Part shown: positions 2,340 to 29,013 of the stretch, one piece after another | Numbering within the stretch: position 1 is the stretch's first letter | Layout: each line of letters starts with the position of its first letter | Source of the DNA: a virus | Direction: 5' to 3' (one strand) | DNA length: 29,058 nucleotides | Virus record (IMG/VR): IMGVR_UViG_3300031688_000089 | Coordinates: 1-29,058 of that record | Program-made: the position numbers and the translations under genes | The notes under the pieces: model-generated | What the model was told of the DNA's origin: nothing | Database searches by the model: none | Seen by the model: the letters and a program-made list of their open reading frames with translations, nothing else

Positions 2340-2810
2340 ATGCTTATCTATGGTATAGACCCAGGATTTACAGGTGCAGTAAGCTTATACTGGACAGACA
2401 CAGGTAAGCTTGAGTGCTACGACATGCCAGTATTTAAGAATGCTAAAGGTAAAACTTTAATTAACTTACATGAGTTGCTAAGAATACTAAGCAATGAGGC
2501 AGATGAGTCATGCCTAGCAGTGATTGAACGTGTAAGCGCCATGCCAAACCAAGGTGTAAGCAGCACGTTTAGATTTGGCCAAGGCTTTGGTCAACTAGAG
2601 ATGGGTATTGCAGCATGTAAGCTACCCATTCAATACGTCAGCCCCGCAGTGTGGAAGAAACACTTCGGATTAAACAGGGACAAAGGTGTCAGTCGTGGCC
2701 TAGCAACGCAACGTCTTCCACAATACGCCCACCTATTTGCTAGAGTCAAAGATGATGGTCGAGCAGAAGCCACACTTATTGCTCTCTATGCAGCAGAGAA
2801 ACTTATCTAA
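2340..2810 (+). CDS. RuvC-like Holliday junction resolvase
   Basis: The 156-aa protein fits the phage branch of RuvC-type crossover junction endonucleases (RNase H fold). The first strand carries 'GIDPGFTGA' with catalytic D7, the second acidic site is E63 in 'VIERV', and the C-terminal 'KDDGRAEATLIALY' supplies D139 and E143 in place of the usual final acidic pair. The length is close to that of RuvC. It is expected to cut branched DNA made during replication and recombination so that packaging can proceed. It lies upstream of the exonuclease and annealing genes. The start has CAGGAGAG at good spacing. Confidence 0.85.
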   Translation: MLIYGIDPGFTGAVSLYWTDTGKLECYDMPVFKNAKGKTLINLHELLRILSNEADESCLAVIERVSAMPNQGVSSTFRFGQGFGQLEMGIAACKLPIQYVSPAVWKKHFGLNRDKGVSRGLATQRLPQYAHLFARVKDDGRAEATLIALYAAEKLI

Positions 2811-6073: not shown

Positions 6074-6529
6074 TTATACTACAAGTTCAAAATGAGGGCC
6101 ATCTATAAATGGCCTTCTACCCTGAGACCTTCGCAAATCAATATAACTATTCATAGCATCTTCCATGTTACCTTCGCTAAACTGTGCGATGTTAGGTACA
6201 GACCAAGCAGCACCCCACACTATAGGCACATCAATTTCACGAGCGGCCTCTGACATGGCATCCGCGATCTCGTCATAGAGATTGAGTTCCCATCTGCCAC
6301 CGTTAACGTAAGCCATTAGATCAACAGCCAAACCGTCAATGTGCTTAGACTTCATGGTCTGGCTTGCGCCCTTGGCAACCAAAACCTTTTGCTCTTCTAT
6401 GGTACGCATCCCACAAATCACAGAGAAGTCTTGCTTGGTGACACTGATTGCGTATTTAACAACAGCAATCATGCGCTCATCAATACCTTCAAGCTTAGAT
6501 ACACTACCTTTGCCTAGTTTATACGTCAT
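6074..6529 (-). CDS. Endolysin, M15 family peptidase
   Basis: The 151-aa protein matches the M15 zinc peptidases (VanY / L-alanyl-D-glutamate or D-Ala-D-Ala endopeptidases) used as phage endolysins. 'SKHIDGLAVD' gives zinc ligands H63 and D70, and 'FIDGPHFEL' gives the catalytic acid D143 and third ligand H146. R42 in 'CGMRTIEEQ' is also typical. It should cut peptide bonds in host peptidoglycan. No signal peptide is present, so release needs a holin; the holin gene overlaps just upstream (ATGA). It is the last gene of the late operon. AAAGGA precedes the start. Confidence 0.9.
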   Translation of the reverse strand: MTYKLGKGSVSKLEGIDERMIAVVKYAISVTKQDFSVICGMRTIEEQKVLVAKGASQTMKSKHIDGLAVDLMAYVNGGRWELNLYDEIADAMSEAAREIDVPIVWGAAWSVPNIAQFSEGNMEDAMNSYIDLRRSQGRRPFIDGPHFELVV

Positions 6530-6867
6530 TGTTTTAATCCTTTCATTGTACGAATCCCAAAGCTAGCTGCTATTGAGGCGTACATTGCCCAGCTAAACCA
6601 GCTTGGTGCTGCCTGTAGATTAATAAAGCCTTGCTCCATGTATGGCTGAAGGCCAGGAATAAAGCTACCTAACACTATGAATATAAAGCATAAAGTCCAA
6701 GCCTCATCCTTCCAAGAATCTTTGCTTGCTTCAATAGCTGACTGCTCCCAGCTTATTTCACCAGTAGCAATCTTCATTTTAGTTTGAGCCTCTGCTTTTT
6801 TTACAGCAGTCTTACCGTCTATATAACTAGTAGCTAACCCAGCTACACTATTTATAATGGCTAACAT
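6526..6867 (-). CDS. Holin, GTA 3TM-type
   Basis: The 113-aa protein has a helical N-terminal half rich in Lys and Ala ('DGKTAVKKAEAQTKMKIATG'), a 'SWKDEAWTLCFIFIVLGSF' segment entering a membrane helix (about residues 52-72), and a second membrane stretch around residues 88-106. This is the layout of the 'holin of 3TMs, for gene-transfer release' family (GTA_holin_3TM). It would form the membrane lesion that lets the adjacent endolysin reach the wall. GGAGG is well placed; the start overlaps the stop of the previous gene by one base. Confidence 0.75.
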   Translation of the reverse strand: MLAIINSVAGLATSYIDGKTAVKKAEAQTKMKIATGEISWEQSAIEASKDSWKDEAWTLCFIFIVLGSFIPGLQPYMEQGFINLQAAPSWFSWAMYASIAASFGIRTMKGLKQ

Positions 6868-7175
6868 TACTTACCTCCAATCTTAGAAAACCCAAAGAAA
6901 GCTCCGACTAATGCAGATACGGATACAAAATACACACCAGCTATAGAAGACAACGATTTAGTAGCCTGTTCTAATCCCAAGAAGGAGCAGAGAACAATAG
7001 CCAGAGGATACAGGAGCATGCCTGAGAGGGCAAACCATGTCATTCTGCGCTGTGCGTCCCGCATTGCATCAGCGTCATCTAGCACACGCCTCCTGTCCTC
7101 TAAGGCTAGTGTGTCCCATTCAGTTTTGCTTACACTTCCGCTTCCATCTAAGTCAGCGTTTTCAAACTCAGTCAT
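6867..7175 (-). CDS. Membrane protein with N-terminal EF-hand loop
   Basis: The 102-aa protein starts with a near-canonical 12-residue EF-hand calcium loop, D8-L-D10-G-S12-G-S-V15-S-K-T-E19, followed by a charged helix and two membrane segments (about residues 46-67 and 74-97). With the holin downstream and a TM/coiled-coil protein upstream, it probably belongs to the lysis or envelope set and may be a second holin or a regulator of one. Calcium binding is inferred from the motif only. GGAGAAAC precedes the ATG; ATGA overlap with the previous gene. Confidence 0.65.
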   Translation of the reverse strand: MTEFENADLDGSGSVSKTEWDTLALEDRRRVLDDADAMRDAQRRMTWFALSGMLLYPLAIVLCSFLGLEQATKSLSSIAGVYFVSVSALVGAFFGFSKIGGK

Positions 7176-12370: not shown

Positions 12371-15300
12371 TCAGTACCTCTTAAACCCGCGAAGCGGATT
12401 AGGGTCGTCGCCCTCTTTAAGCATATTTTCAAAATCGTTAAATGTACTTTTGGCAAACCAAAGGGCAGTGAATGGAGCGCTGTCAATAAGCTCTGCTACG
12501 CCATTACCTACGTTTCCAGTTACGATATCCTTAACACCTGTTGCTATCTCAGCGCCGATACTAACGCCAGCACCACCTAACCCAGAGACAGCATCTATTG
12601 CGCTTGGTTCTTGAGGAAATCTAGGCTCAAGAAGACCACCTGTTAAGTTAGGGCCGCCTAAAGCTAGGCTCGTAGACATAGCAGTATAGGCTATGTCTGA
12701 ATAAAGAGCCGCTGTTCCTGAGTAATCAAAAGATCTTGCAAGCTTATCTTGAAACGACATCTCAACCCAATCAGGTGTTTTGTATTGCAACACCATGTAG
12801 CCCAAGCCCATAGATATTGCTGTTCCAAGAAAGCGATCCTTTAATTGACCATGAGCGTGAGCCGCAGCAACCTTATTTACTGACGCAAGGCTGTAGCTGT
12901 AGAACTGAAACGGCAATGAAAGCAATCCGTTTTCAATCCTAGAGTAACCTTTAAATTCAGCGTCTTCCCTCATGCCAAATTGCTTTGCGATCCGCATTGG
13001 AATGTAAGCAATGCCATCTGTAATGATAGGTTTGTCAGCAGGCGTTCCCATGAGAATAGTATTTAAAACACCAGAGCTAAGTGCGCTACGGAAATCCCTA
13101 ACAGTCTCCGCGCTTGTCCTTGGTTGTCCCTCTATTTCCCTAACAGTAAGATCATTAATAGCATTTTCATAAGCAGCGTTAGATTTAGCTGTTTTGTTGC
13201 TGAAGCCAAGAGATTTAGCTGAGTTGTTAGAGTGCATAATTTCGTGCATTTTAATGAAAGCTACGTAATCATCAGGAGAGTTTATTATTCCATCTTTAAT
13301 TGGAGTTACGCCTTTTACTCTAGGGTTTTCCCACCCCCGCAAAGGCCACATAACATCTTTAATGTACTCTTCATCAATGTAAATCTTGTCTTGCTTTGCG
13401 TTATAAAATGCTGGTCTGTATCTGCCCTCTGGTGTTCCGTCTGCTGCAAAGGATTTAGTGTTGCCAGAAACAACTTCGGCTTTAGTTGCAGGGAATTGAA
13501 TTGTATCCGTCCAAGCCCCTGTATTGGCCATATACATACCATCGCTAGACTTTTCCCAAGGAGCAGCCGCAATCTTAGTCGCTAGGTCTAAATCTATATT
13601 ATACCTAAGCAAGTATTCTTGTTCCATTTTGGTGGCTTTACCTTTAGTCCACCTTACTGAGTAATCAATTAAAGTATCTGCACGAACCATTGCATCAAAG
13701 TCTTTAAGTAATTTTGTAATCGGGCCAAGACCGTTTAGCAAAAAGAATGGGTTTTTCATTTTGTCAAAAATGTCAGACCTAAATGGGTTATTGTTTAACT
13801 CATCAACAAGCCTAGTGTGGACTGAGTTCATTAAGTTATCTAAGCCCTCACCAGAAACCCTTAGCTCTCTACCCGCAAGTTTTAGCTTGTTGTCGTTTAA
13901 CACGCCAAATAAAGCCTTCATAGTTTTGCCTATGCCATGCTCCATCATGATCTTTGCTGGCTCTGTTAGCGTCATTAGACCAGCAGAGCCTAGAAAATTA
14001 AGCGTAGCTAAATCCCTCAAAATTTTAGCTGTTGTTTGATTTGCTGAGTCTGGATCTCTTAGCACTCCACCAACAACTCTTTTGTATAAATGCCTTATGT
14101 CTTTTAAAGCCGCATGGCTTTGCTGCATTGTCATGCCAGACTTAATCATTTCATCCATTGCATCGTCTAAAACATCGTCAATAGAGTTACCATTGAATTG
14201 CCTTGAAAATTCATAGCGAGGCCCAACGCGAGTTGTGTATGCTCTCATAACTGCTACTGGATTTGTTTGAATGTAATCTAAAATTAACCTGTTCGGTATA
14301 TCAAGAGATCTGTGTTTAAAATGTTTTGATTTACCCATGCCGTAATAGCCCATTTCTGGGTCAGTAATGTCTTTAAGTCCAAGAATGTTATCAGTCGTCT
14401 GGCTTGCCCTTAATCTTAATGACGCATCATCAGTGTTCATTACTGTTTTTTTAACTTTTCCAGCAGTCCTTCTAATTAATATTGGGTTATCTCTAAACCA
14501 AGCCATTAATATTTCTTCAAACTCAACTCTGTTTGCTTTTATAGAGTCGATGTCAAAGTAACGTGGCCTAAAGTTTATTTCATTAGGGGCATTTACAGGA
14601 GTGCTATCGCCAATATCTTCTAAATTTAACTTAGCCTCATCAAGCTCATCAGATAAGCGTTTAACATTACCTTCTAACTTTGCGATGTAATCAGCGCTTT
14701 TAGGGCGTCCGTTGCTGAGTATGTCTTGCGTCTTCTTTATTCTTATTTCCCTACCAGTAATAAACTTTTGAAGAACAGGCTTAGAACCAATCATGCCTTG
14801 CTCGTTAAGCCTAGTTTCCCAAGTCTTGTAAAAGTTATTCATCTTATCCATGACTTGAGATTCAATATTGTCAGCAGGCCTCTCACCTCTCATCGACTTC
14901 TTGTCAATGTTTTCTAACCATTTCTCAAAGCCAGATATATTTAAAGTATAATCAAACGCACTTGTTACACCTTTACCAGAAGACTCTCCCCATAAAGGCA
15001 TCAGATCATTCTGAAGAACAGCCCACTCGCCTTCAAATTGTTTTGAGTTCTGGTAAACTGACGAACCTATTTTTTGATTGTTGCGATTCATTGCAAGCAA
15101 TATTCCAGAGTCATTAACAATTTTTAACGTAGTCATTTTTACTGAGTTTGGTAAAATCTTGCTTTGAAGCACACGTTTCATAGGTGTTGTTACAGCTTTA
15201 AAAAGCCATGAGTCAGTAAAAACACTAGACGCAATGCTGCCATCTTTATCTATTGCTTCTCCAGCCGCATTAAGCGCAACTGGTCTTGGTCTAGTAGACT

Positions 15301-15925
15301 TAATAAAGTTTTTAAATTCTTTAGTAGCGCCTTTATGAACTGCGTTTGTACGGTTTGCTGGTATTGTAAGAAGTCCAGTAAGCGCACCTCCCATTACAAA
15401 TGAAGCCCCTAAATTAATAGCAACTTCTGTTTTTGTGGCCAATGGATCAGTTGAGTACCTAGCAGCCTCTTGCCCAGCTACTACCGCAGTTACGGAAGCA
15501 CCACCTTTTAAAAAACGTGTAGCAAACATACCAACTCTAGCAAAAGGAAGCGCAACAAAATTTACTGGATCAAGCAACTCAACTGCAAATTGTGTAATGA
15601 TTCCAGAGCCACTTAAATCCCTTCTATCTTGTGCGCTTTGGTTAATAGTAGAAACTATGTAGTCAAAATGTTTGTCATTAGTTGCTCTTAAAAGATCTGA
15701 GCTATACGCCATTAGCCCCCTAGGCCCATTCTTAATTCTTTTTTCAGCGTCAAAACCATCTTGTGGTTCGCTTGGAAAATTATTTCCTTCGTTTATGCGC
15801 CTTAATAATGAACCATACTTGTACCCCATAGAAGCCGATAAAGTTTTACCAATCCCAACCTCAGGGATTATGTCCTCCCTAACGCCTTCTTGAATTATCC
15901 TTGAGGCAGTAAAAGCATTTTCCAT
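12371..15925 (-). CDS. Large internal virion protein with zincin-like HExxH motif
   Basis: The 1184-aa product occupies the position of T7 gp16 (1318 aa), the largest ejected core protein. The N-terminal fifth has a 'LLDPVNFVALPFARVGMFAT' and Ala/Gly-rich hydrophobic region (about 110-190) that could enter the membrane. The long middle is helical. At 894-898 it has H-E-I-M-H, a zinc-protease HExxH motif, preceded by 'NAKQDKIYIDEEYIKD' and followed by E920 in 'NAAYENAINDLTVREIE', a possible third ligand. No lysozyme or transglycosylase motif like that of T7 gp16 is seen. The start overlaps no neighbour; GGAAATT precedes the ATG. Confidence 0.78.
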   Translation of the reverse strand: MENAFTASRIIQEGVREDIIPEVGIGKTLSASMGYKYGSLLRRINEGNNFPSEPQDGFDAEKRIKNGPRGLMAYSSDLLRATNDKHFDYIVSTINQSAQDRRDLSGSGIITQFAVELLDPVNFVALPFARVGMFATRFLKGGASVTAVVAGQEAARYSTDPLATKTEVAINLGASFVMGGALTGLLTIPANRTNAVHKGATKEFKNFIKSTRPRPVALNAAGEAIDKDGSIASSVFTDSWLFKAVTTPMKRVLQSKILPNSVKMTTLKIVNDSGILLAMNRNNQKIGSSVYQNSKQFEGEWAVLQNDLMPLWGESSGKGVTSAFDYTLNISGFEKWLENIDKKSMRGERPADNIESQVMDKMNNFYKTWETRLNEQGMIGSKPVLQKFITGREIRIKKTQDILSNGRPKSADYIAKLEGNVKRLSDELDEAKLNLEDIGDSTPVNAPNEINFRPRYFDIDSIKANRVEFEEILMAWFRDNPILIRRTAGKVKKTVMNTDDASLRLRASQTTDNILGLKDITDPEMGYYGMGKSKHFKHRSLDIPNRLILDYIQTNPVAVMRAYTTRVGPRYEFSRQFNGNSIDDVLDDAMDEMIKSGMTMQQSHAALKDIRHLYKRVVGGVLRDPDSANQTTAKILRDLATLNFLGSAGLMTLTEPAKIMMEHGIGKTMKALFGVLNDNKLKLAGRELRVSGEGLDNLMNSVHTRLVDELNNNPFRSDIFDKMKNPFFLLNGLGPITKLLKDFDAMVRADTLIDYSVRWTKGKATKMEQEYLLRYNIDLDLATKIAAAPWEKSSDGMYMANTGAWTDTIQFPATKAEVVSGNTKSFAADGTPEGRYRPAFYNAKQDKIYIDEEYIKDVMWPLRGWENPRVKGVTPIKDGIINSPDDYVAFIKMHEIMHSNNSAKSLGFSNKTAKSNAAYENAINDLTVREIEGQPRTSAETVRDFRSALSSGVLNTILMGTPADKPIITDGIAYIPMRIAKQFGMREDAEFKGYSRIENGLLSLPFQFYSYSLASVNKVAAAHAHGQLKDRFLGTAISMGLGYMVLQYKTPDWVEMSFQDKLARSFDYSGTAALYSDIAYTAMSTSLALGGPNLTGGLLEPRFPQEPSAIDAVSGLGGAGVSIGAEIATGVKDIVTGNVGNGVAELIDSAPFTALWFAKSTFNDFENMLKEGDDPNPLRGFKRY

Positions 15926-15928
15926 TTA

Positions 15929-18900
15929 TTAATTTCCTAACTCAGAAGGAGCAAACCTTTGAACAAGTTTAGCCCTATCTTGCTTGGCTACAAAATCAAT
16001 TAATTTTTGAGCGCTATTGGGATCATTGCGATCATAGCCTTGAGTTGCTTTGAACTCTTCACGAGCTTGTTTTTGTATTTTTGCATTTGCTCTAAGCGCT
16101 ATCAGCTGATCAATTCTACTCATTTGCTCGTTATCTGCTATTAACGAACCAACTGTTTCTTTGACGCCATAGCTTGCCCAGTAATCTACAGAACCCGCCG
16201 TACCTATAGGCACAGGTTTAATTACTGGAGGATTTAATTCTAAGCCAGCAGCTTCAACGGGAAACATAAGCGGTTGTAACTCGTTATTTTCGTCAACGTA
16301 AAAAGTCCTGTATCGAAGAACTGCCCCCGTGTCGTCAGGCTCAAGATAAATGTTTCCCTCTTCATTTCCGCTAAGGAATTGGTGGGTAGCTATTGTTTGT
16401 TCTGCTCTTTGGTCAGCGTTCTGTGTAAAAACTCTTGCTTGCAACATTCTTAAATCTGGAAACGTAGGGTCTATTGCATTCAGTTCTAATGCAAGATTTT
16501 TTACCTCAGTATCAATTACATCAATAAATATACCTCTGACTATAGGATCAGGCATAACTTTTTCAAGTGAATGTCTGGACATATGAATGGAGTCGTTTGG
16601 CATTGAGCTATCAACTATATACGGAGACTCTCGGTATTGTTCGCTTATAATTGCTTTTAATCTTTTATCGACCATCCTCTTAGTTGAGCCGTTAGCAGCA
16701 AGATATTCAACAAGTGGAGCAAGTTCTGTTGCCATGAGAGGGTTTTGTGTGCCAAAAAAACTAGTGGTATAATCACTGGTGTAGGCTAATGCTGATGGGA
16801 AATCACCTAGAACATTAATCAAGTTTAATTTTGCTGAATCTTTTGTCTTTACCGCTATAAGATTACCAATAATGTCTTGAATTGTTTTGCCTTCATTGGC
16901 CCCTGTTATTTTAAAAACATCAAACGCATCATCAAGTATTTCTCTGTCGGCTAGAGATATAGAATCACCAAGGAAATTAGCCCCCTGTGATGCTATTTCG
17001 GTTAAGCCTTCAGACAATAACTTGTAATAGCTCATTAGATCATTAGCGCCCTCTACTGGTAAACCTTTTGCCATTCGCTCCATGCTTTCAAAAAACGAAG
17101 AGGGAGGTGTAATTTTACCAAGTTCAATAACAAGCGCTCGTGTTTCTGCGTCCATGCTATTGAATGTTGCTAAATTTAAACCTTCTTTTTCAAAAACCTT
17201 AGTCATAAGGCTTCGGTCTTTTGCTTGAAGAACGTCTCCACCACCTGACAAAAGCGCTTCTATTTCTTGTGCCTCTCTAAATGCCTGCACTTCTACTGCT
17301 TGCCTTGCTTTTACTTCAGATAAAGATGCATTCATGTCAGAGGTTAAACCTTTTGTAAGGTCTTTGTCTAAAATAGAATTAGCGTAACCTTGCATTGTTT
17401 GGATTAAAAACTTTTGATGCTGTGTTAAATCTTCACCTTCTCCAGCGTCACTAAAATAACTTACAATTTGATTGGCCTGTGTTGAGCTTGGATTTGTTCC
17501 CAATATTTTTAGAAAAATGTTTTTAGCCCCAGCCAGCCTAAGCGCTTCCATTGCTGATGTTGCAACTTCTTGAGTTATCCCAGCTGTATTATAGATTTCA
17601 TTTTGTTTAATAATAAAAATGCCAGCAGCAGACTCAACACTTGGGCCAAAATTAGTTCCAATTAAATCCATATTACCTACTGTAAAAGCAGCATTGTTTG
17701 CGGCATTAATTTCACGTTGCTTATTCAGTGAGTCAATAGCTTTTGCGCCACCTTGTCTGTAGCTTTTTGTTGCGGCTTCAGCTTTTGACCATATGGTAGA
17801 ATCGCCACTTTTAGGATAAAGCTTTTCAAGAGCAATGAGAACTCCCAACACCTCTGCGCTTTCTGCGGTTGGCGATATATTAGGATCTCTTGCTGCAATA
17901 GCTAAAAGCTGTTGATCCGCTTGGGCAGAGGTTAAGCCCACTAGCATTCTATCAATGCTTCCATCTACCGTTGCAACAACAGACTCATCAATATTGTCAC
18001 CTATTGTTTTAGCAAGTTCAGAAAGACCTCTTGAATTTGCTATGTCCCTTTCAATTACTTGCTGTTCAATGTCTGCATAGAGACCAGTAACTAATTTGAC
18101 GCCATCTCTTGACTCAAAGGCATCTGTGTTAAATTGGCTCATTTCTTCGTTTGTGTATTCGGTCTTTGTTGCGTCAGCTAAATCACCAATCTCAAGTATC
18201 GTTTTAAGGCTAGCTATAGTTTCTGCCCTAACGGTTCCCGATGGGTCTGACGTAATTAAATCTTCAAGTTCTGAAATTAATTTAAGTGTTGCTTTATCGG
18301 CAACCTCTCCACCAAGTCCGTCAAGCTCAGATGAATCTCCTGTACTATAATATGAAATAATTTCTTTAATTTGATCCGGACGAAATCTTTTACTTGTTTT
18401 TTGGTTTTCAAATAAAATGGCCTTAGCAGTAGTTGATCTTATTAAGAGCGCTCTGTCTAAAAAACTTTGACCTAATGCAGCATTTGCTGGATTTAAATCT
18501 GTATCAAGAAATGCATTTCTTGCCCGATCGTCAAATGTTTCTGCTCTTCTATTATGATGTCTAGCAGCAGAACTTAAGTTTCCATTAAAGCCAGTACGAA
18601 TGCTTTGTCGTATACTCAATTCACTAGTAATACGATCTCGTGATAAATTCCAAGTTTGTTTTGCTTGATCGTTTAAAAGTTCATTTCTTTCTTCTTGCTC
18701 TCTTATGTTTGATAGCACTGCTATAGGTCTTAGATGCTCTGTTGCAAAGTCTGCAACATTTTCTAAGGCTGTAAAATCGTTTCCAAAATCAGTAATGTAA
18801 GTTTTTAAATACTTAAACTCTAAAGGAAGAAGATCTGGATTAGCGTTGTCAAACGCAGCCTCAATCTCAGTTAAATCTTCTGTGCTTGTATCTTCGGTTA

Positions 18901-19633
18901 TGCCCCTAAGTATTCCTTTTGTTTTGCTAACCATTAATGCAGTTCTTGCTTTAGCGATAGCGCTCTTAGGCAAAAGGTCAGCGTTTACAGCGTCAATAAC
19001 TCCCTGAATAGCGCCCTCTCCAAAGATTTCTGCTTGTTCTGGATTGGACGCATGTAAAGATTCAACAGCTTGATTGGCGTCAGTAAACGACTTTTGAGTA
19101 AATTCTATTAACTCTGTTCTTTCGCGTTCACTTTGCAGCAAAGCAAGCTTTTGAGTTGTAAGGTCACGGTAGGTCATACCCGTATCTTGAATGTAAGATT
19201 TATAGCCTGCCCCGTCTGCGGCCTCAACCATTGACTCAACGTAATCGCTCATGCTCTTGTGGTATAAGGATGCACCGTTGCGGTTGTATTTATATTTGCC
19301 AGAAAGCTCGTCGCCCTTAAGCTGTATCTCATTTTGTATTGACGTTTCAAATCTGTTTCTAGCAACCCTATCATAAGCATCGGATGCAATAGAGCCAAAA
19401 CCTTTTGGCGGAACAAGTGGTTGAGGCAAGCCAGTTTCTGGATCAATTACTATTGCACTGTAACCAGCGTCCGTTCCGATATCTTCAGCCCTTCTAGCCA
19501 TAGCCTCATATTGTATTTGGCCTACTGCACTTAGAGCTTCTGAGATTGATTCGTTTACTATGCTAGTATTGGCCGACCTTGTTACGCCAACAGGGCCGAT
19601 ACGGAAATTACGTTGCTCTCTAATTACGGCCAT
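15929..19633 (-). CDS. Large internal virion protein (gp15-like position)
   Basis: The 1234-aa product is almost entirely polar and helical, without signal peptide or clear membrane segments. It begins 'MAVIREQRNFRIGPVGVTRS' and has long Ala/Glu/Lys/Gln-rich stretches such as 'LALLQSERERTELIEFTQKS'. By position between the gp14-like and gp16-like genes it corresponds to T7 gp15 (747 aa), an ejected protein of the trans-envelope channel, but it is much longer and I see no sequence-level family proof. GGAAGG precedes the ATG, which overlaps the previous stop by one base. No enzyme motif was recognised. Confidence 0.72.
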   Translation of the reverse strand: MAVIREQRNFRIGPVGVTRSANTSIVNESISEALSAVGQIQYEAMARRAEDIGTDAGYSAIVIDPETGLPQPLVPPKGFGSIASDAYDRVARNRFETSIQNEIQLKGDELSGKYKYNRNGASLYHKSMSDYVESMVEAADGAGYKSYIQDTGMTYRDLTTQKLALLQSERERTELIEFTQKSFTDANQAVESLHASNPEQAEIFGEGAIQGVIDAVNADLLPKSAIAKARTALMVSKTKGILRGITEDTSTEDLTEIEAAFDNANPDLLPLEFKYLKTYITDFGNDFTALENVADFATEHLRPIAVLSNIREQEERNELLNDQAKQTWNLSRDRITSELSIRQSIRTGFNGNLSSAARHHNRRAETFDDRARNAFLDTDLNPANAALGQSFLDRALLIRSTTAKAILFENQKTSKRFRPDQIKEIISYYSTGDSSELDGLGGEVADKATLKLISELEDLITSDPSGTVRAETIASLKTILEIGDLADATKTEYTNEEMSQFNTDAFESRDGVKLVTGLYADIEQQVIERDIANSRGLSELAKTIGDNIDESVVATVDGSIDRMLVGLTSAQADQQLLAIAARDPNISPTAESAEVLGVLIALEKLYPKSGDSTIWSKAEAATKSYRQGGAKAIDSLNKQREINAANNAAFTVGNMDLIGTNFGPSVESAAGIFIIKQNEIYNTAGITQEVATSAMEALRLAGAKNIFLKILGTNPSSTQANQIVSYFSDAGEGEDLTQHQKFLIQTMQGYANSILDKDLTKGLTSDMNASLSEVKARQAVEVQAFREAQEIEALLSGGGDVLQAKDRSLMTKVFEKEGLNLATFNSMDAETRALVIELGKITPPSSFFESMERMAKGLPVEGANDLMSYYKLLSEGLTEIASQGANFLGDSISLADREILDDAFDVFKITGANEGKTIQDIIGNLIAVKTKDSAKLNLINVLGDFPSALAYTSDYTTSFFGTQNPLMATELAPLVEYLAANGSTKRMVDKRLKAIISEQYRESPYIVDSSMPNDSIHMSRHSLEKVMPDPIVRGIFIDVIDTEVKNLALELNAIDPTFPDLRMLQARVFTQNADQRAEQTIATHQFLSGNEEGNIYLEPDDTGAVLRYRTFYVDENNELQPLMFPVEAAGLELNPPVIKPVPIGTAGSVDYWASYGVKETVGSLIADNEQMSRIDQLIALRANAKIQKQAREEFKATQGYDRNDPNSAQKLIDFVAKQDRAKLVQRFAPSELGN

Positions 19634-20109
19634 TACCTTCCGCCTCCGCTTGCTGCTGTCTTCATCATATCGTTTAAGCCAGAAGCTACTGATATAAATG
19701 CTCTATACCTTGAGGCAACTAATGAGGCTTGCCCTTCGGCCCTTACTGCAAATATTTGTTGGTTGTATTTTAAAGACTCCGCTCTGCCCATTATATCTGA
19801 TCGGGCAGTGTCGTTAGTAGCAACATCCCTTTGCCTGTTAAGAAAAGCAGATACACTTTTAGTGCCTCTTCCAGGGGTTCTAAAGTCTCCAAGATCTCTT
19901 CCAGTAGCAGCAAACGCCGCAATGTTAGACGACAAATTAGATTTATATTGTTCAAGTCTATCGTTGTGACGTTGCTGAGACTCAACCTCACTCATTTTCT
20001 TTTCAGTGCCGAGTTTGTATGAGTTAAGATTAGCTACATTTTTAGCTCGTTTTCCCTCGTCAAGCTGGCTCTTTGCTTGCAGCGTCATTGTAAGTAATTG
20101 AAGGAACAT
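19633..20109 (-). CDS. Internal virion protein, gp14-like
   Basis: The 158-aa product is helical and rich in Gln, Asn, Ser and Arg ('LQAKSQLDEGKRAKNVANLN', 'ESQQRHNDRLEQYKSNLSS', 'SRYRAFISVASGLNDMM'). This composition and its position right after tail tubular protein B fit T7 gp14 (196 aa), the first internal core protein to be ejected into the outer membrane. The assignment rests on order and style, not on a motif. Start and stop overlap both neighbours by one base, so the three internal protein genes are coupled. Confidence 0.65.
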   Translation of the reverse strand: MFLQLLTMTLQAKSQLDEGKRAKNVANLNSYKLGTEKKMSEVESQQRHNDRLEQYKSNLSSNIAAFAATGRDLGDFRTPGRGTKSVSAFLNRQRDVATNDTARSDIMGRAESLKYNQQIFAVRAEGQASLVASRYRAFISVASGLNDMMKTAASGGGR

Positions 20110-22355
20110 TATATAATTAACTCCGCTATCAATCCATTTACCTGCAATGGCAATGGATCGGTTTGTTCAATAGTAATCTGTGGGTCACGACTGTATCCAA
20201 GAACTCTAACTTCTTTTTTACCGTTAAAACCTGATAGGCTTGAGAAGGTACGTCCGTTTACCTTTAAGGATCGAGCATTCTTTAAATCTAAAATAACACT
20301 ACTAACTCCACGGACGTTTCCAGTTTGTGGGCCAGACGCTGCGTTAACATCAATTGGGTTGGTAACTATTTTAGCTGTAAACTTTTTGCCTACATAGGCG
20401 TGTGTAAAGCCGTGACCTGCGTATGCTGTCAGGTCTACCTTGTTTGCGCTGTTTACTGTAAACGAACCAAGGTGCGACTCAACTGTTCCATTAGTAACAA
20501 CTACATCCACAACCTGTGTGTTTGTATATAAATCGCTTACATCCACAAGATTGTTACTAACAGCCTTAAAGAGATACATATCCAAACCAACGTCACCAGA
20601 AAATTCGCACAGTTGAAGCTTGTTGTACTCATCATATACATTAACAAAAAGTCTATTGCGTAACGCGACTACACCTGCAAACCTACCTTTGGTTGTAACT
20701 CTAGTCCATGAAGCTCTTTTCTCTGCACGGTTAGATGAGAAGATTGCGGCTTCGCCCCCGACCCTAACAAAAAACGCATAAGAGTCTGGTAGCTCAAAGC
20801 CGCCGTGTACAACGGCCATAGAGGCGGGGTTGTCAATTAGGTGCGATGATAGCGTAGAAACCGAAGTGGCCGTGTAGGCGTCCTCTGTGTCGGTGTAGAG
20901 GTATTCTCTGATAGACTTACCCCCGTGCTGCACAAAGATAGTTGCTCCATCAATTGACACAGGCTCAACAAACTCAGCGCCAAACGGCGTTTGCTTTCTG
21001 ATCTGGGCGTTAGTCGGCGTGATTGCTTGGTTTAAGTAAGTAGGAACGTACAGTTCGTTTGACGCTGTAAAGACTTGTAGGTCTCTGTTTGACACAAGGT
21101 ATCTAATTTCATTCACTTCGCCTGTTGCGGCAGTGAGAAAGATTGCGTCTATGTCGTCTGCTGCTCCTACATCAAAGTTAAAGAACTGTCCAATTTTGCT
21201 CATCCAAAGTGTGTCTGGCTCTGCTAGTGTTCCACCAAAGACAAGCCTGTTTTCATGAAAAGTAATAGCGGCAGGGTATCCACGTTTAGCTGAGTATGAC
21301 TGCTCTGACCAACCTCTTGTCGGCGCGTGAGTTCCTATTTTAACATTACCACCGCCATCTATTGCAGAGCTAGCATCGCCACCAGCCGTATAGGTATATG
21401 TGTTGTCGTCTATAATAGTGCTAGATATTGTTCTTGCGCCGTTTATATTTGATGTATTAATCCCGCCAATAGCTGTAGCGCCTACAATTGTAATTGCTTC
21501 ACCGCCAGCAAAGCCATGAGCAATATGAGTAACTTCGACTAATGCTGAACCAGCAGTTGTTCGCAACGGGTCAATTACCGCTAGCCTAACCTCTAGTGGG
21601 CTTACTATATTACCTGTAGCTTGTGTCGCAGATTGAACGCTAACTATTTCTATATCTGATTCGTGATACCTAATTGTAACTCCAACATGCTTAGAAGATG
21701 TATAGTTACCATTAGTAGCACTGCCTGTAAGATCCCAATAAGCAACGCTTGTTGTTAAAGTTGCGCCATCGCCTGATACTTTGCTGGGGTCTAAGGTTAC
21801 AGCTTGGTTCTGAAAAGAATTATATGGTTGATATATTTGCTTGCCATCAGCGCGTGAGTCAAAAGTAAACGTGCTTACGTCAAAGTTTGTTAAACTTGTC
21901 CTAGTAATTACTCTTGGTGCAAACAGAGGGTGGCATACAAAAAGAACGTCCCCATATTGGGCTGTTGTTATTTGAGAAAGATAGTCTTGGTCAAAAGGTA
22001 AGGCAGCATTACTAGTATCTGCCGTTACCGTATCAACTAATGATGTCGTAGTAGAGTTGACTAGCCTAAAAAACCTAAGCTTTTGATGCTCTATAGAAAC
22101 AACATACTGCTCGTTGTCGTCATATATAAAGTGAGTTAAGTGAGACTTGTTAGGATTAGAGGCGTCATAAGTTAAGTTGTACGAAGCCGCATACCTAAGC
22201 CCAAATCGTTTCTTTACAGAACCCTCGGCCATGACCAAGAAGTTTTCAACACGTTGTGCTGAACCTGCATAGATAGCAGTATCAGTACGCATGATAAGTG
22301 AATCACTTACTTCACCGTACTGAAAACTATTCATTGGGATTCTTATCTTTTGCAC
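20109..22355 (-). CDS. Tail tubular protein B (gp12-like)
   Basis: The 748-aa protein shows the conserved nozzle-protein beginning: 'FQYGEVSDSLIMRTD', 'QRVENFLVMAEGSVKKRFG', then 'THFIYDDNEQYVVSIEHQKL'. Further typical segments are 'WSEQSYSAKRGYPAAITFHE', 'RLVFGGTLAEPDTLWMSKIG' and 'LTAATGEVNEIRYLVSNRD'. T7 gp12 is 794 aa; it forms the tail nozzle below the adaptor. The start is GTG at 22355, overlapping the stop of the previous gene (TAGTG); an ATG seven codons later lacks a ribosome-binding site. Possible beta-rich insertions lie around residues 200-330. Confidence 0.9.
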   Translation of the reverse strand: MQKIRIPMNSFQYGEVSDSLIMRTDTAIYAGSAQRVENFLVMAEGSVKKRFGLRYAASYNLTYDASNPNKSHLTHFIYDDNEQYVVSIEHQKLRFFRLVNSTTTSLVDTVTADTSNAALPFDQDYLSQITTAQYGDVLFVCHPLFAPRVITRTSLTNFDVSTFTFDSRADGKQIYQPYNSFQNQAVTLDPSKVSGDGATLTTSVAYWDLTGSATNGNYTSSKHVGVTIRYHESDIEIVSVQSATQATGNIVSPLEVRLAVIDPLRTTAGSALVEVTHIAHGFAGGEAITIVGATAIGGINTSNINGARTISSTIIDDNTYTYTAGGDASSAIDGGGNVKIGTHAPTRGWSEQSYSAKRGYPAAITFHENRLVFGGTLAEPDTLWMSKIGQFFNFDVGAADDIDAIFLTAATGEVNEIRYLVSNRDLQVFTASNELYVPTYLNQAITPTNAQIRKQTPFGAEFVEPVSIDGATIFVQHGGKSIREYLYTDTEDAYTATSVSTLSSHLIDNPASMAVVHGGFELPDSYAFFVRVGGEAAIFSSNRAEKRASWTRVTTKGRFAGVVALRNRLFVNVYDEYNKLQLCEFSGDVGLDMYLFKAVSNNLVDVSDLYTNTQVVDVVVTNGTVESHLGSFTVNSANKVDLTAYAGHGFTHAYVGKKFTAKIVTNPIDVNAASGPQTGNVRGVSSVILDLKNARSLKVNGRTFSSLSGFNGKKEVRVLGYSRDPQITIEQTDPLPLQVNGLIAELII

Positions 22356-27489: not shown

Positions 27490-29013
27490 CTATAGCCTAG
27501 CCCACAATCCCTGCCTTTTGCGCTGGTTGGGCTTGCGATTAAACACATCAAAGTCCCTTTTTGCAATGCTAGCAACTGCTGGTTTCTGATTATTCATCAA
27601 AGCGCGGCCTTCACCAGCGCCAAGAAACAAGTATTGTGCTGCGTCATGTACGTGAGAAAACATATTCTTATCAGGCTTATCGTCAAAGCGCTCACCTGAA
27701 ACTTGCATTCTCTTATATGCGTAGCCTCCCTCAAATCCCTTAATGAGTTGAGTGCATCGCCTGTCAATTAATAATGCTGGCTTACCTTCTATCATCTTGG
27801 TTAGCTGGGAGGAGACAGCCTCAAGTCGAAGGTCAACAGAGTTGGAAGGCGCGGGGAACGCTCTCAAGCCAGCTCCGCGCATGATGTGAAAGGGAGTAGA
27901 CTCATCAGTTTGCGCGCGGAAATCTCCTGAAGGATCGCCATATATTATGACTTCACCCGCAGCGGCAAACCTTGTTGCCAATTCTTGTCGTAAAACCTCT
28001 GAGAATCTAACGATGCCCATGTCAATTGCTACAATTTCTGCTTGTAAAAACCACCTGCCACGGACTTTTTGCCCAATAACAGCGGCGGGAGTAAGCCCAA
28101 AGTCCACTCCAACGTACAAAGGGACGTTAGCGGCTACTGGTATTTCCTCTTTTGCAACGTGAACTTCTGCGGCGAACATAGGATACACAGGTTTTCCTTC
28201 TTGGATATGGCCAAGTCTATTCATAACATAGACATCAATCCATGATTTGGTCTTACCCTGCACTAGATTTGGGTAGTAACTCTTCATCATGTTCTTTTGA
28301 TTCTCCGCTCCCTTGCTGGGAACGTATCCTTCTATCTCACCTTGCTCGTCTTTTGTCTCAACCATGCCAGAGGGCTGGGTATAGAAACTCCAATTAGTCG
28401 GCTTGACCAACATCTTAGCTTGCTCACGCGGTATATGATCTGGGATTGGAACCTCACCAGACATAATCGGCCACCAGTGATCCTCTTCGGGAGCGTTGGT
28501 ATCGGCAATAACGCCAGTCCAAGAAGGGCCACCATCACGCATAGAAGGGTAACGGCCAACGCGCATCGTACAGGCATCAATAATGCTCTTAGGAATCTCC
28601 CTAGCCTCATTAATCCAGATACCAGTAAGCTCCAAGGAGAGTAATTTTTTAACATCTTCTGGCCTATCTAGGGCAAGGAATAGAACCTCTAGTTCTACGT
28701 CACCTTTTTTAATATTGTGAGTGTAGGGAACAGACCAAGTAAACTTCCCCCAATCAGCTTCGGGAAACCAATCCAACCAAGTCTTAATGGTTGTTGTTCT
28801 TAGCTGTGGGTTGGTGTTTCGTATAATAGCCCAACGGCTTTTACGCTTTCCATCGGGTGATTTCTCTTGTTCAAGAGCGCGGCGGAATACTTCGACACAG
28901 CAAGCAACAGATTTGCCTGAGCCTACGGGGCCTCTTATTCCACGAAAAAATGTTTGATCCTTCATGAAGTCCTTAATGGTAGCCCCATCAGGCTTATACT
29001 TAAAATCTGGCAT
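27490..29013 (-). CDS. terL: Terminase large subunit
   Basis: The 507-aa protein has both terminase domains. ATPase: Walker A 'GPVGSGKS' (28-35) and Walker B 'GIWINEARE' (131-139). Nuclease (RNase H-like): D304 in 'VGVDFGLTPA', D360 in 'IYGDPSGDF' and D457 in 'HVHDAAQYL'. It translocates DNA into the prohead and cuts it. It is somewhat shorter than T7 gp19 (586 aa). The start overlaps the stop of the upstream gene by one base (TAATG); a ribosome-binding site is weak (AAGAAG), which fits coupling to that gene. Confidence 0.95.
   Translation of the reverse strand: MPDFKYKPDGATIKDFMKDQTFFRGIRGPVGSGKSVACCVEVFRRALEQEKSPDGKRKSRWAIIRNTNPQLRTTTIKTWLDWFPEADWGKFTWSVPYTHNIKKGDVELEVLFLALDRPEDVKKLLSLELTGIWINEAREIPKSIIDACTMRVGRYPSMRDGGPSWTGVIADTNAPEEDHWWPIMSGEVPIPDHIPREQAKMLVKPTNWSFYTQPSGMVETKDEQGEIEGYVPSKGAENQKNMMKSYYPNLVQGKTKSWIDVYVMNRLGHIQEGKPVYPMFAAEVHVAKEEIPVAANVPLYVGVDFGLTPAAVIGQKVRGRWFLQAEIVAIDMGIVRFSEVLRQELATRFAAAGEVIIYGDPSGDFRAQTDESTPFHIMRGAGLRAFPAPSNSVDLRLEAVSSQLTKMIEGKPALLIDRRCTQLIKGFEGGYAYKRMQVSGERFDDKPDKNMFSHVHDAAQYLFLGAGEGRALMNNQKPAVASIAKRDFDVFNRKPNQRKRQGLWARL

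What the first reader, a model, noticed from the sequence alone, without database searches (positions are those of the whole stretch)
12371..15925. HExxH zincin-like motif inside the 1184-aa internal virion protein
H894-E-I-M-H898 followed by E920 has the spacing of a gluzincin-type zinc site, and the segment before it ('KIYIDEEYIKD') looks like a domain edge. T7 gp16 carries a transglycosylase instead. An ejected protein with a protease domain could cleave host envelope or cytoplasmic proteins on entry, or process core proteins.
Basis: partly seen in the sequence, partly recalled or inferred. Interest (0 to 1): 0.6.

Follow-up and report, generated by a model that had tools for sequence, protein, structure and literature searches.

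The report
Swappable protease cassette in ejection protein
A large protein that a marine phage probably injects into its host carries a small zinc-protease-like domain, which related phages lack, swap for a different version, or carry at another place in the same protein; it looks like exchangeable cargo aimed at the host rather than part of the injection machine.

Summary
The motif is real. The gene (minus strand, 12371-15925) encodes a T7 gp16-type ejection protein with HEIMH at 894-898 and Glu920. A backbone-only search gave 80 relatives: 55 carry an HExxH insert at this site, 24 join the backbone directly, 1 is truncated. Of the distinct sequences pooled from all searches, 73 of 73 inserts keep HExxH plus a downstream Glu, with synonymous codon variation; none of 19 insert-free proteins has HExxH anywhere. 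AlphaFold2 predicts a mini-zincin core; the best solved matches are zincins or the YbeY fold (IrrE, YbeY, ArdC), all below Z 8. The insert behaves as a cassette: two contigs 90-100% identical in DNA on both flanks carry zincins only 35% identical; related zincins sit at two other places in the carrier; some hold further nested inserts. A conserved, exchangeable catalytic site on a probably injected carrier best fits an effector peptidase acting in the host; self-processing or wall digestion fits less well. Zinc binding, proteolysis and substrate are untested. Zincins in injected phage 'polyvalent' proteins are known (N4 virion RNA polymerase, P1 DdrB); the gp16-type carrier with cassette exchange at several slots was not found in the papers searched.

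The parts
12371..15925 (-). Gene for the 1184-aa gp16-type ejection protein (carrier), stop codon included
   Evidence: ORF; phrog_342 E 1.8e-45 over residues 16-713
13094..13510 (-). Zincin cassette, residues about 806-944, inserted between the backbone elements NTGAW and FRSAL
   Evidence: Empty-site relatives with 8 residues here; AlphaFold2 model
13232..13246 (-). HEIMH, residues 894-898: two predicted metal ligands and the catalytic Glu
   Evidence: HExxH in 73 of 73 distinct inserts; codons vary synonymously; in helix 884-900 of the model
13151..13171 (-). YENAIND, residues 919-925, with E920 the predicted third metal ligand
   Evidence: Glu motif in every distinct insert, 72 by pattern and L156 by eye; in helix 913-933 of the model
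13367..13387 (-). KIYIDEE, residues 847-853: core strand and start of the following helix
   Evidence: Model; I850, D851 and E852 invariant in the first homologue set
13787..15880 (-). gp16-type backbone, residues 16-713
   Evidence: phrog_342 match
12374..13093 (-). C-terminal backbone, residues 945-1184, shared by insert-bearing and insert-free relatives
15236..15310 (-). Second slot, residues about 206-230: relatives L238, L239, L241, L242 and L243 carry a zincin here; empty in the window
14435..14470 (-). Third slot, residues about 486-497: relative L244 carries an HELHH domain here; empty in the window

Best explanation
Residues about 806-944 are a compact zincin-type metallopeptidase cassette (HExxH plus a downstream Glu) inserted into the C-terminal part of a T7 gp16-type ejection protein. 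The carrier is packaged in the head and ejected with the genome (inferred from the T7 family). T7 gp16-C is modelled on the cytoplasmic side of the inner membrane (PMC8954989), so the domain is probably delivered to, or to the edge of, the host cytoplasm (inferred). H894 and H898 with E920 would hold a metal ion and E895 would activate the attacking water (inferred from zincins in general). The domain then most likely cleaves one or a few host proteins early in infection; defence or stress-regulator proteins are plausible targets (inferred). Shown here: the insert, the invariance of the site, the predicted fold, the exchange of cassettes and the use of several slots.
For: 73 of 73 distinct inserts keep HExxH and a downstream Glu, while 0 of 19 insert-free relatives have HExxH anywhere. 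Backbone-only search, free of motif bias: 55 with, 24 without, 1 truncated. Synonymous codon variation at all four residues; dN/dS of the domain 0.01-0.18 in 12 pairs. Predicted zincin-like core with pLDDT 91-96 over most of it; top structural matches are IrrE, YbeY, ArdC, minigluzincins, lethal factor and Wss1. Exchange of zincin type on near-identical carriers, L156/L159 and L206/L208. Other slots in L238-L244. Backbone tree needs at least 5 changes of presence/absence.
Against: No zinc binding, proteolysis or substrate has been shown. All structural matches have Z below 8 and Foldseek E-values against PDB are not significant. Foldseek/VIA matches include YbeY, a metal-dependent RNase with a related fold. 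Virion location, ejection and side of the membrane are inferred from T7; the alignment to T7 gp16 is weak (probability 58%). In ArdC the related domain is dispensable for the tested function: E229A still works (PMC7213743). Exchange could also reflect ordinary recombination without selection by the host.
Confidence: 0.6

Rival explanations
1. Self-processing peptidase: the zincin cuts its own carrier or neighbouring core proteins, before packaging or after ejection, as proposed for phage P1 DdrB.
For: Iyer et al. propose self-cleavage for the zincin of P1 DdrB and as one option for N4 (PMC5512222). The carrier is large and multi-domain.
Against: Relatives with the same backbone have no zincin and no HExxH at all. 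The domain is swapped for another zincin on near-identical carriers and sits at other positions in other relatives. N4 virion RNA polymerase is packaged uncut.
Confidence: 0.17
2. Envelope or cell-wall enzyme: the domain cuts peptidoglycan cross-links or envelope proteins to let the ejection channel through, doing the job of the T7 gp16 transglycosylase.
For: The window protein does not match the first 215 positions of phrog_342, the family named for its endolysin domain, and T7 gp16 has a wall-cutting N-terminus (PMC8954989).
Against: L206 has an endolysin-like N-terminus (phrog_873, E 1.7e-10) as well as the zincin, and L167 has neither an N-terminal match nor HExxH. The domain lies in the half that is modelled as cytoplasmic in T7.
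Confidence: 0.1
3. Metal-binding or partner-binding module whose peptidase activity is not what matters, as ArdC appears to be in conjugation.
For: ArdC E229A still promotes conjugation (PMC7213743); the region holding the N4 zincin is needed for packaging (PMC5512222).
Against: The catalytic base E895, which does not hold the metal, is as invariant as the ligands; the domain is absent from many relatives, so it is not needed for packaging the carrier.
Confidence: 0.12
4. Chance motif in a structural protein, with no metal site.
For: A single HExxH can arise by chance; T7 gp16 itself has one at residue 559, in a different context.
Against: Invariant in every insert, strictly tied to the insert, and predicted zincin-like fold.
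Confidence: 0.01

Closest known systems
Zincin-like MPTases of polyvalent proteins (Iyer et al. 2017, PMC5512222; Pfam PF18818), with ArdC of plasmid R388 as a solved example
   Same: Small core with HExxH on one helix and a Glu on the next; variable inserts between those helices; carried in large proteins that enter the cell with the DNA; ArdC is among the structural matches (Z 5.3, rmsd 3.0, 88 residues, 19% identity)
   Different: The window domain has no Pfam match (relative L208 E 0.031, below the cut-off). The carrier is a T7 gp16-type ejection protein, and the domain is exchanged at several slots of it; neither gp16 nor 'internal virion' is mentioned in that paper
N4 virion RNA polymerase, C1 domain (PMC12633501; PMC5512222)
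   Same: An HExxH zincin-like domain in a phage protein that is ejected into the cell
   Different: No detectable sequence relation beyond the motif; carrier is an RNA polymerase, not gp16; described as almost always present there, not optional
IrrE/PprI and ImmA-type peptidases (M78)
   Same: Best structural match with the window model: 3dti Z 7.0, rmsd 2.4, 85 residues; IrrE cuts one regulator protein, DdrO (as cited in PMC7213743)
   Different: No significant sequence match (relative L208 E 0.1); not free-standing or part of a regulator
T7 gp16 and its swappable transglycosylase domain (PMC8954989)
   Same: Carrier of the same type (phrog_342); precedent for an enzyme domain that moves between ejection proteins
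   Different: Here the enzyme is a zincin, inserted in the C-terminal half, optional and exchangeable; the review does not contain the words peptidase or protease

Membership tests
Zincin metallopeptidases | HExxH on a helix, conserved in the family | tested here: met
Zincin metallopeptidases | Third ligand downstream, on a separate helix | tested here: met
   Conserved E920 in helix 913-933 of the model; distances to H894/H898 not measurable here
Zincin metallopeptidases | Small sheet plus helix before the active-site helix | tested here: met
   Strands 817-820, 839-842, 847-850 and helix 852-862 in the predicted model; a prediction, not a solved structure
Zincin metallopeptidases | Fold match to solved zincins | tested here: inconclusive
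   Top list is zincins or YbeY but all Z below 8; Foldseek not significant
Zincin metallopeptidases | Bound metal and proteolysis | not testable with these tools
   Needs protein
Gluzincins | Glu as third ligand on the helix after HExxH | tested here: met
   E920 conserved in every distinct insert
Gluzincins | Glutamate-helix motif (E,H)xx(A,F,T,S,G), as given in PMC7213743 | tested here: not met
   Residue +3 from E920 is Ile923, invariant in 30 sequences; so 'gluzincin-like', not filed as a gluzincin
Metzincins | HExxHxxGxxH/D | tested here: not met
   HEIMHSNNSAK
MPTase-PolyVal (PF18818) | Score above the Pfam cut-off | tested here: not met
   No hit for the window protein or alignment A1; L208 14.8 bits against 27.5
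MPTases of polyvalent proteins (described features) | Variable inserts between the HExxH and Glu helices, in a large phage protein encoded beside virion genes | tested here: met
   Gap from 13 to 254 residues; gene lies among virion genes
Peptidase M78 (IrrE, PF06114) | Score above the Pfam cut-off | tested here: not met
   No hit for the window; L208 12.9 bits against 22
T7 gp16-type ejection proteins | Profile match to the internal virion protein D family | tested here: met
   phrog_342 E 1.8e-45
T7 gp16-type ejection proteins | Gene order after gp14-like and gp15-like genes | tested here: inconclusive
   gp14-like neighbour phrog_418 E 1.6e-4; the 1234-aa protein in the gp15 position has no match
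T7 gp16-type ejection proteins | N-terminal transglycosylase (phage-specific, not universal, per PMC8954989) | tested here: not met
   Match to phrog_342 starts at profile position 216
T7 gp16-type ejection proteins | Presence in the virion and transfer into the cell | not testable with these tools
   No isolate and no proteomics used here

The most novel reading that the evidence does not exclude
gp16-type ejection proteins of marine podoviruses act as delivery platforms with several docking slots, at which zincins, some with further domains nested inside them (one related to a domain found in polyvalent proteins), are exchanged by recombination; the zincin is an injected peptidase that removes host defence or regulatory proteins, and cassette type follows the host.
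Probability: 0.3. Interest if true: 0.8.

Novelty: new variant of a known kind. Interest (0 to 1): 0.62.

Why it matters
The role of zincins in injected phage proteins is unsettled: self-processing, structure or attack on the host. Here nature supplies the controls: nearly identical ejection proteins with one zincin or with a different one, close ones with none, and zincins moved to other places in the carrier. That argues against a structural or self-processing role and makes the effector idea testable by comparing matched phages. The nearest sequenced isolate by terminase (Hodr, 64% identity) infects SAR11, so the host may be a SAR11-like marine bacterium, which is a guess. If the zincins are effectors, gp16-type proteins become a place to look for early host-takeover factors.

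Tried and rejected
Genome-contig scan with A1: 54 pattern hits, none a relative by tblastn, so nothing was found in bacterial genomes at that sensitivity. The nested 234-aa insert of L041/L190 looked like an ADP-ribosyltransferase by eye, but Pfam and PHROGs scans and tblastn against phages gave nothing and a viral-contig scan found only its own two contigs; left open. The A3 versus A4 profile comparison was discarded because the two alignments share rows; the independent A1 versus A4 comparison gives probability 96.7%, E 3.3e-10 over 51 columns. N4 zincin versus this family: no match beyond the motif. Sequence searches of solved structures gave no zincin. Foldseek against PDB gave nothing significant for either model. 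Fold match to YbeY, an endoribonuclease: rejected as a guide to function because the window has HExxH...E, whereas YbeY carries a three-histidine motif (own knowledge). The careful tree did not finish; the quick tree was used, so counts of changes are approximate. T7 gp16 has an HERLH at 559 in a different context; treated as unrelated. Searches failed through wrong input; an hhalign run failed on file format.

Full report
THE OBSERVATION. The ORF at 12371-15925 lies on the minus strand and encodes 1184 residues. HEIMH is at 894-898, and E920 follows 22 residues after H898. With 12 His and 61 Glu, 0.006 HExxH motifs are expected by composition. The protein matches phrog_342, 'internal virion protein with endolysin domain', at E 1.8e-45 over residues 16-713, starting at profile position 216; the N-terminal part of that profile is not matched. 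Neighbouring genes include a gp14-like protein (19633-20109, phrog_418 E 1.6e-4), a tail protein (20109-22355, phrog_376 E 3.5e-96) and a terminase gene (27490-29013; matched records are annotated as terminase), so the window is most likely from a short-tailed phage. The closest isolate by terminase is Pelagibacter phage EXVC031P Hodr, 64% identity.

CONSERVATION. 52 IMG/VR loci encode relatives. They keep H894, E895, H898 and E920; the one row without them is Hodr, about 26% identical, which lacks the region. Those searches used patterns that include the motif, so an unbiased search was made with a backbone segment that excludes it (residues 640-800, alignment A2). Of 80 loci, 55 have an insert with HExxH, 24 join the backbone with at most 31 residues, and one is truncated. 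Pooling all searches and removing duplicates, the stretch at this site has 8 residues in most insert-free sequences (8-31 in 19) and 125-371 residues in 73, with HExxH in all 73. The Glu motif was found by pattern in 72 of them and read by eye in the last, L156 (YEKRIDDLA). The 19 insert-free proteins have no HExxH anywhere. Within the insert, the invariant columns of 30 diverse sequences are Phe890, HExxH, Tyr919, Glu920 and Ile923; one further relative, L192, has Asn in place of the Tyr. Codons of the four key residues vary synonymously, and dN/dS of the domain is 0.01-0.18 in 12 pairs against 0.02-0.10 for the backbone.

FOLD. AlphaFold2 on residues 788-1000 with 30 sequences gives mean pLDDT 77.9 and pTM 0.65 overall, with ten-residue blocks of 91-96 over most of residues 838-927. 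Strands lie at 817-820, 839-842 and 847-850 and helices at 852-862, 884-900 (HEIMH) and 913-933 (E920). A second look at Foldseek's matches puts IrrE/PprI (3dti: Z 7.0, rmsd 2.4, 85 residues), YbeY (1oz9: Z 6.8, rmsd 3.9, 103 residues), ArdC (6i89: Z 5.3, rmsd 3.0, 88 residues), abylysin, selecase, anthrax lethal factor and Wss1 at the top. No Z reaches 8 and no PDB Foldseek E-value is below 0.2, so the support is the agreement of the list with the motif, not any single score. Coordinates are not returned, so ligand distances were not measured. Pfam, NCBIfam and PADLOC give nothing significant; relative L208 gives sub-threshold matches to MPTase-PolyVal (E 0.031) and Peptidase_M78 (E 0.1).

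A CASSETTE. Some relatives carry a different zincin at the same site, with HELHH or HEMMH and YExRI[DN]. The two types are related around the catalytic helices (profile comparison without shared rows, probability 96.7%, E 3.3e-10 over 51 columns). A model of the second type has mean pLDDT 90.0 and pTM 0.86, with HELHH and the Glu again on two successive helices; its leading matches are YbeY (Z 7.0) and dipeptidyl-peptidase III (Z 6.5), and the list becomes mixed below that. L156 (HELHH) and L159 (HEIMH) are 90-100% identical in DNA per 60 bp over 600 bp on each side of the site, while their inserts are 35% identical in protein; L206 and L208 show the same pattern less sharply. L187 lacks the insert although its backbone is 81% (before) and 92% (after) identical in protein to L184, which has it. 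A quick tree of the backbone needs at least 5 changes of presence or absence and 9 changes of type (the careful search did not finish, and the tree cannot tell gain from loss). A search with the second type found it at two other places in gp16-type carriers: at about window residue 206-230 in L238, L239, L241, L242 and L243, and at about 486-497 in L244. The original site is empty in L238, L241 and L244 (read directly); for L239, L242 and L243 this follows from the blastp coordinates. L244 keeps HELHH but not the YExRI motif.

NESTED INSERTS. L041, L190 and L191 have about 234 extra residues between HExxH and the Glu, on a carrier 95-97% identical to L188 (L191 compared); L117 has 92 extra residues before the core strand, on a carrier 94-100% identical to L043. 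Relatives of the L117 insert occur in large proteins of other phages, one of which carries ART-PolyVal and another LPD22. So a domain from the polyvalent-protein repertoire appears inside the zincin.

MECHANISM. T7 gp16 has an N-terminal transglycosylase in the periplasm, two membrane regions (243-410 and 1119-1290) and residues 411-1118 modelled in the cytoplasm (PMC8954989). Window residues 79-159 align to T7 294-380 (probability 58%), and the window's hydrophobic stretches lie at 108-190, so all three slots would follow the first membrane region, on the cytoplasmic side. This mapping is weak and is inference. The chemistry is inferred from zincins in general. The choice of a host substrate rests on the domain being dispensable, exchangeable and position-independent while its catalytic residues, including the base E895, do not vary. 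Self-processing is disfavoured by the same facts. Wall digestion is disfavoured because L206 has both an endolysin-like N-terminus and the zincin, and L167 has no HExxH and no match to the N-terminal part of the profile. The ArdC precedent, where E229A still functions in conjugation (PMC7213743), is a real caution.

KNOWN OR NEW. Iyer et al. [quoted passage not shown] N4 virion RNA polymerase has an ejected HExxH domain (PMC12633501). Neither 'gp16' nor 'internal virion' occurs in the former, and the ejection-protein review has no mention of a peptidase or protease. Only open-licence papers were searched. What is added here is the gp16-type carrier, the empty-site comparison, the exchange on near-identical carriers and the alternative slots. 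I rate it a new variant of a known kind.

Noticed in passing
L041, L190, L191 (between HExxH and the Glu motif): About 234 extra residues sit inside the zincin loop on a carrier otherwise 95-97% identical to L188; the sequence resembles an ADP-ribosyltransferase by eye only, with no database match.
   Followed up: partly
L117 (insert before the core strand); relatives L213-L227: A 92-aa insert (IRVYHGG...GRWVSTNRDYAENYG) has relatives in large proteins of other phages, some with ART-PolyVal or LPD22 domains.
   Followed up: partly
L206 and L208, N-terminus: These gp16-type proteins begin with about 170 residues; in L206 they match an endolysin family (phrog_873), on top of the C-terminal zincin.
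   Followed up: partly
window 6867-7175 (-): 102-aa protein with apparent membrane segments and an EF-hand-like loop (DLDGSGSVSKTEW), next to the endolysin gene; possibly a holin.
   Followed up: no
window 6074-6529 (-): Endolysin of the M15 peptidase type (Pfam PF13539 E 2.2e-05; phrog_465 E 1e-43).
   Followed up: no
window 15929-19633 (-): 1234-aa protein in the gp15 position without any convincing Pfam or PHROGs match.
   Followed up: no
window 2340-2810 (+): 156-aa protein starting MLIYGIDPGFTGAVSLY looks like a RuvC-type Holliday junction resolvase.
   Followed up: no
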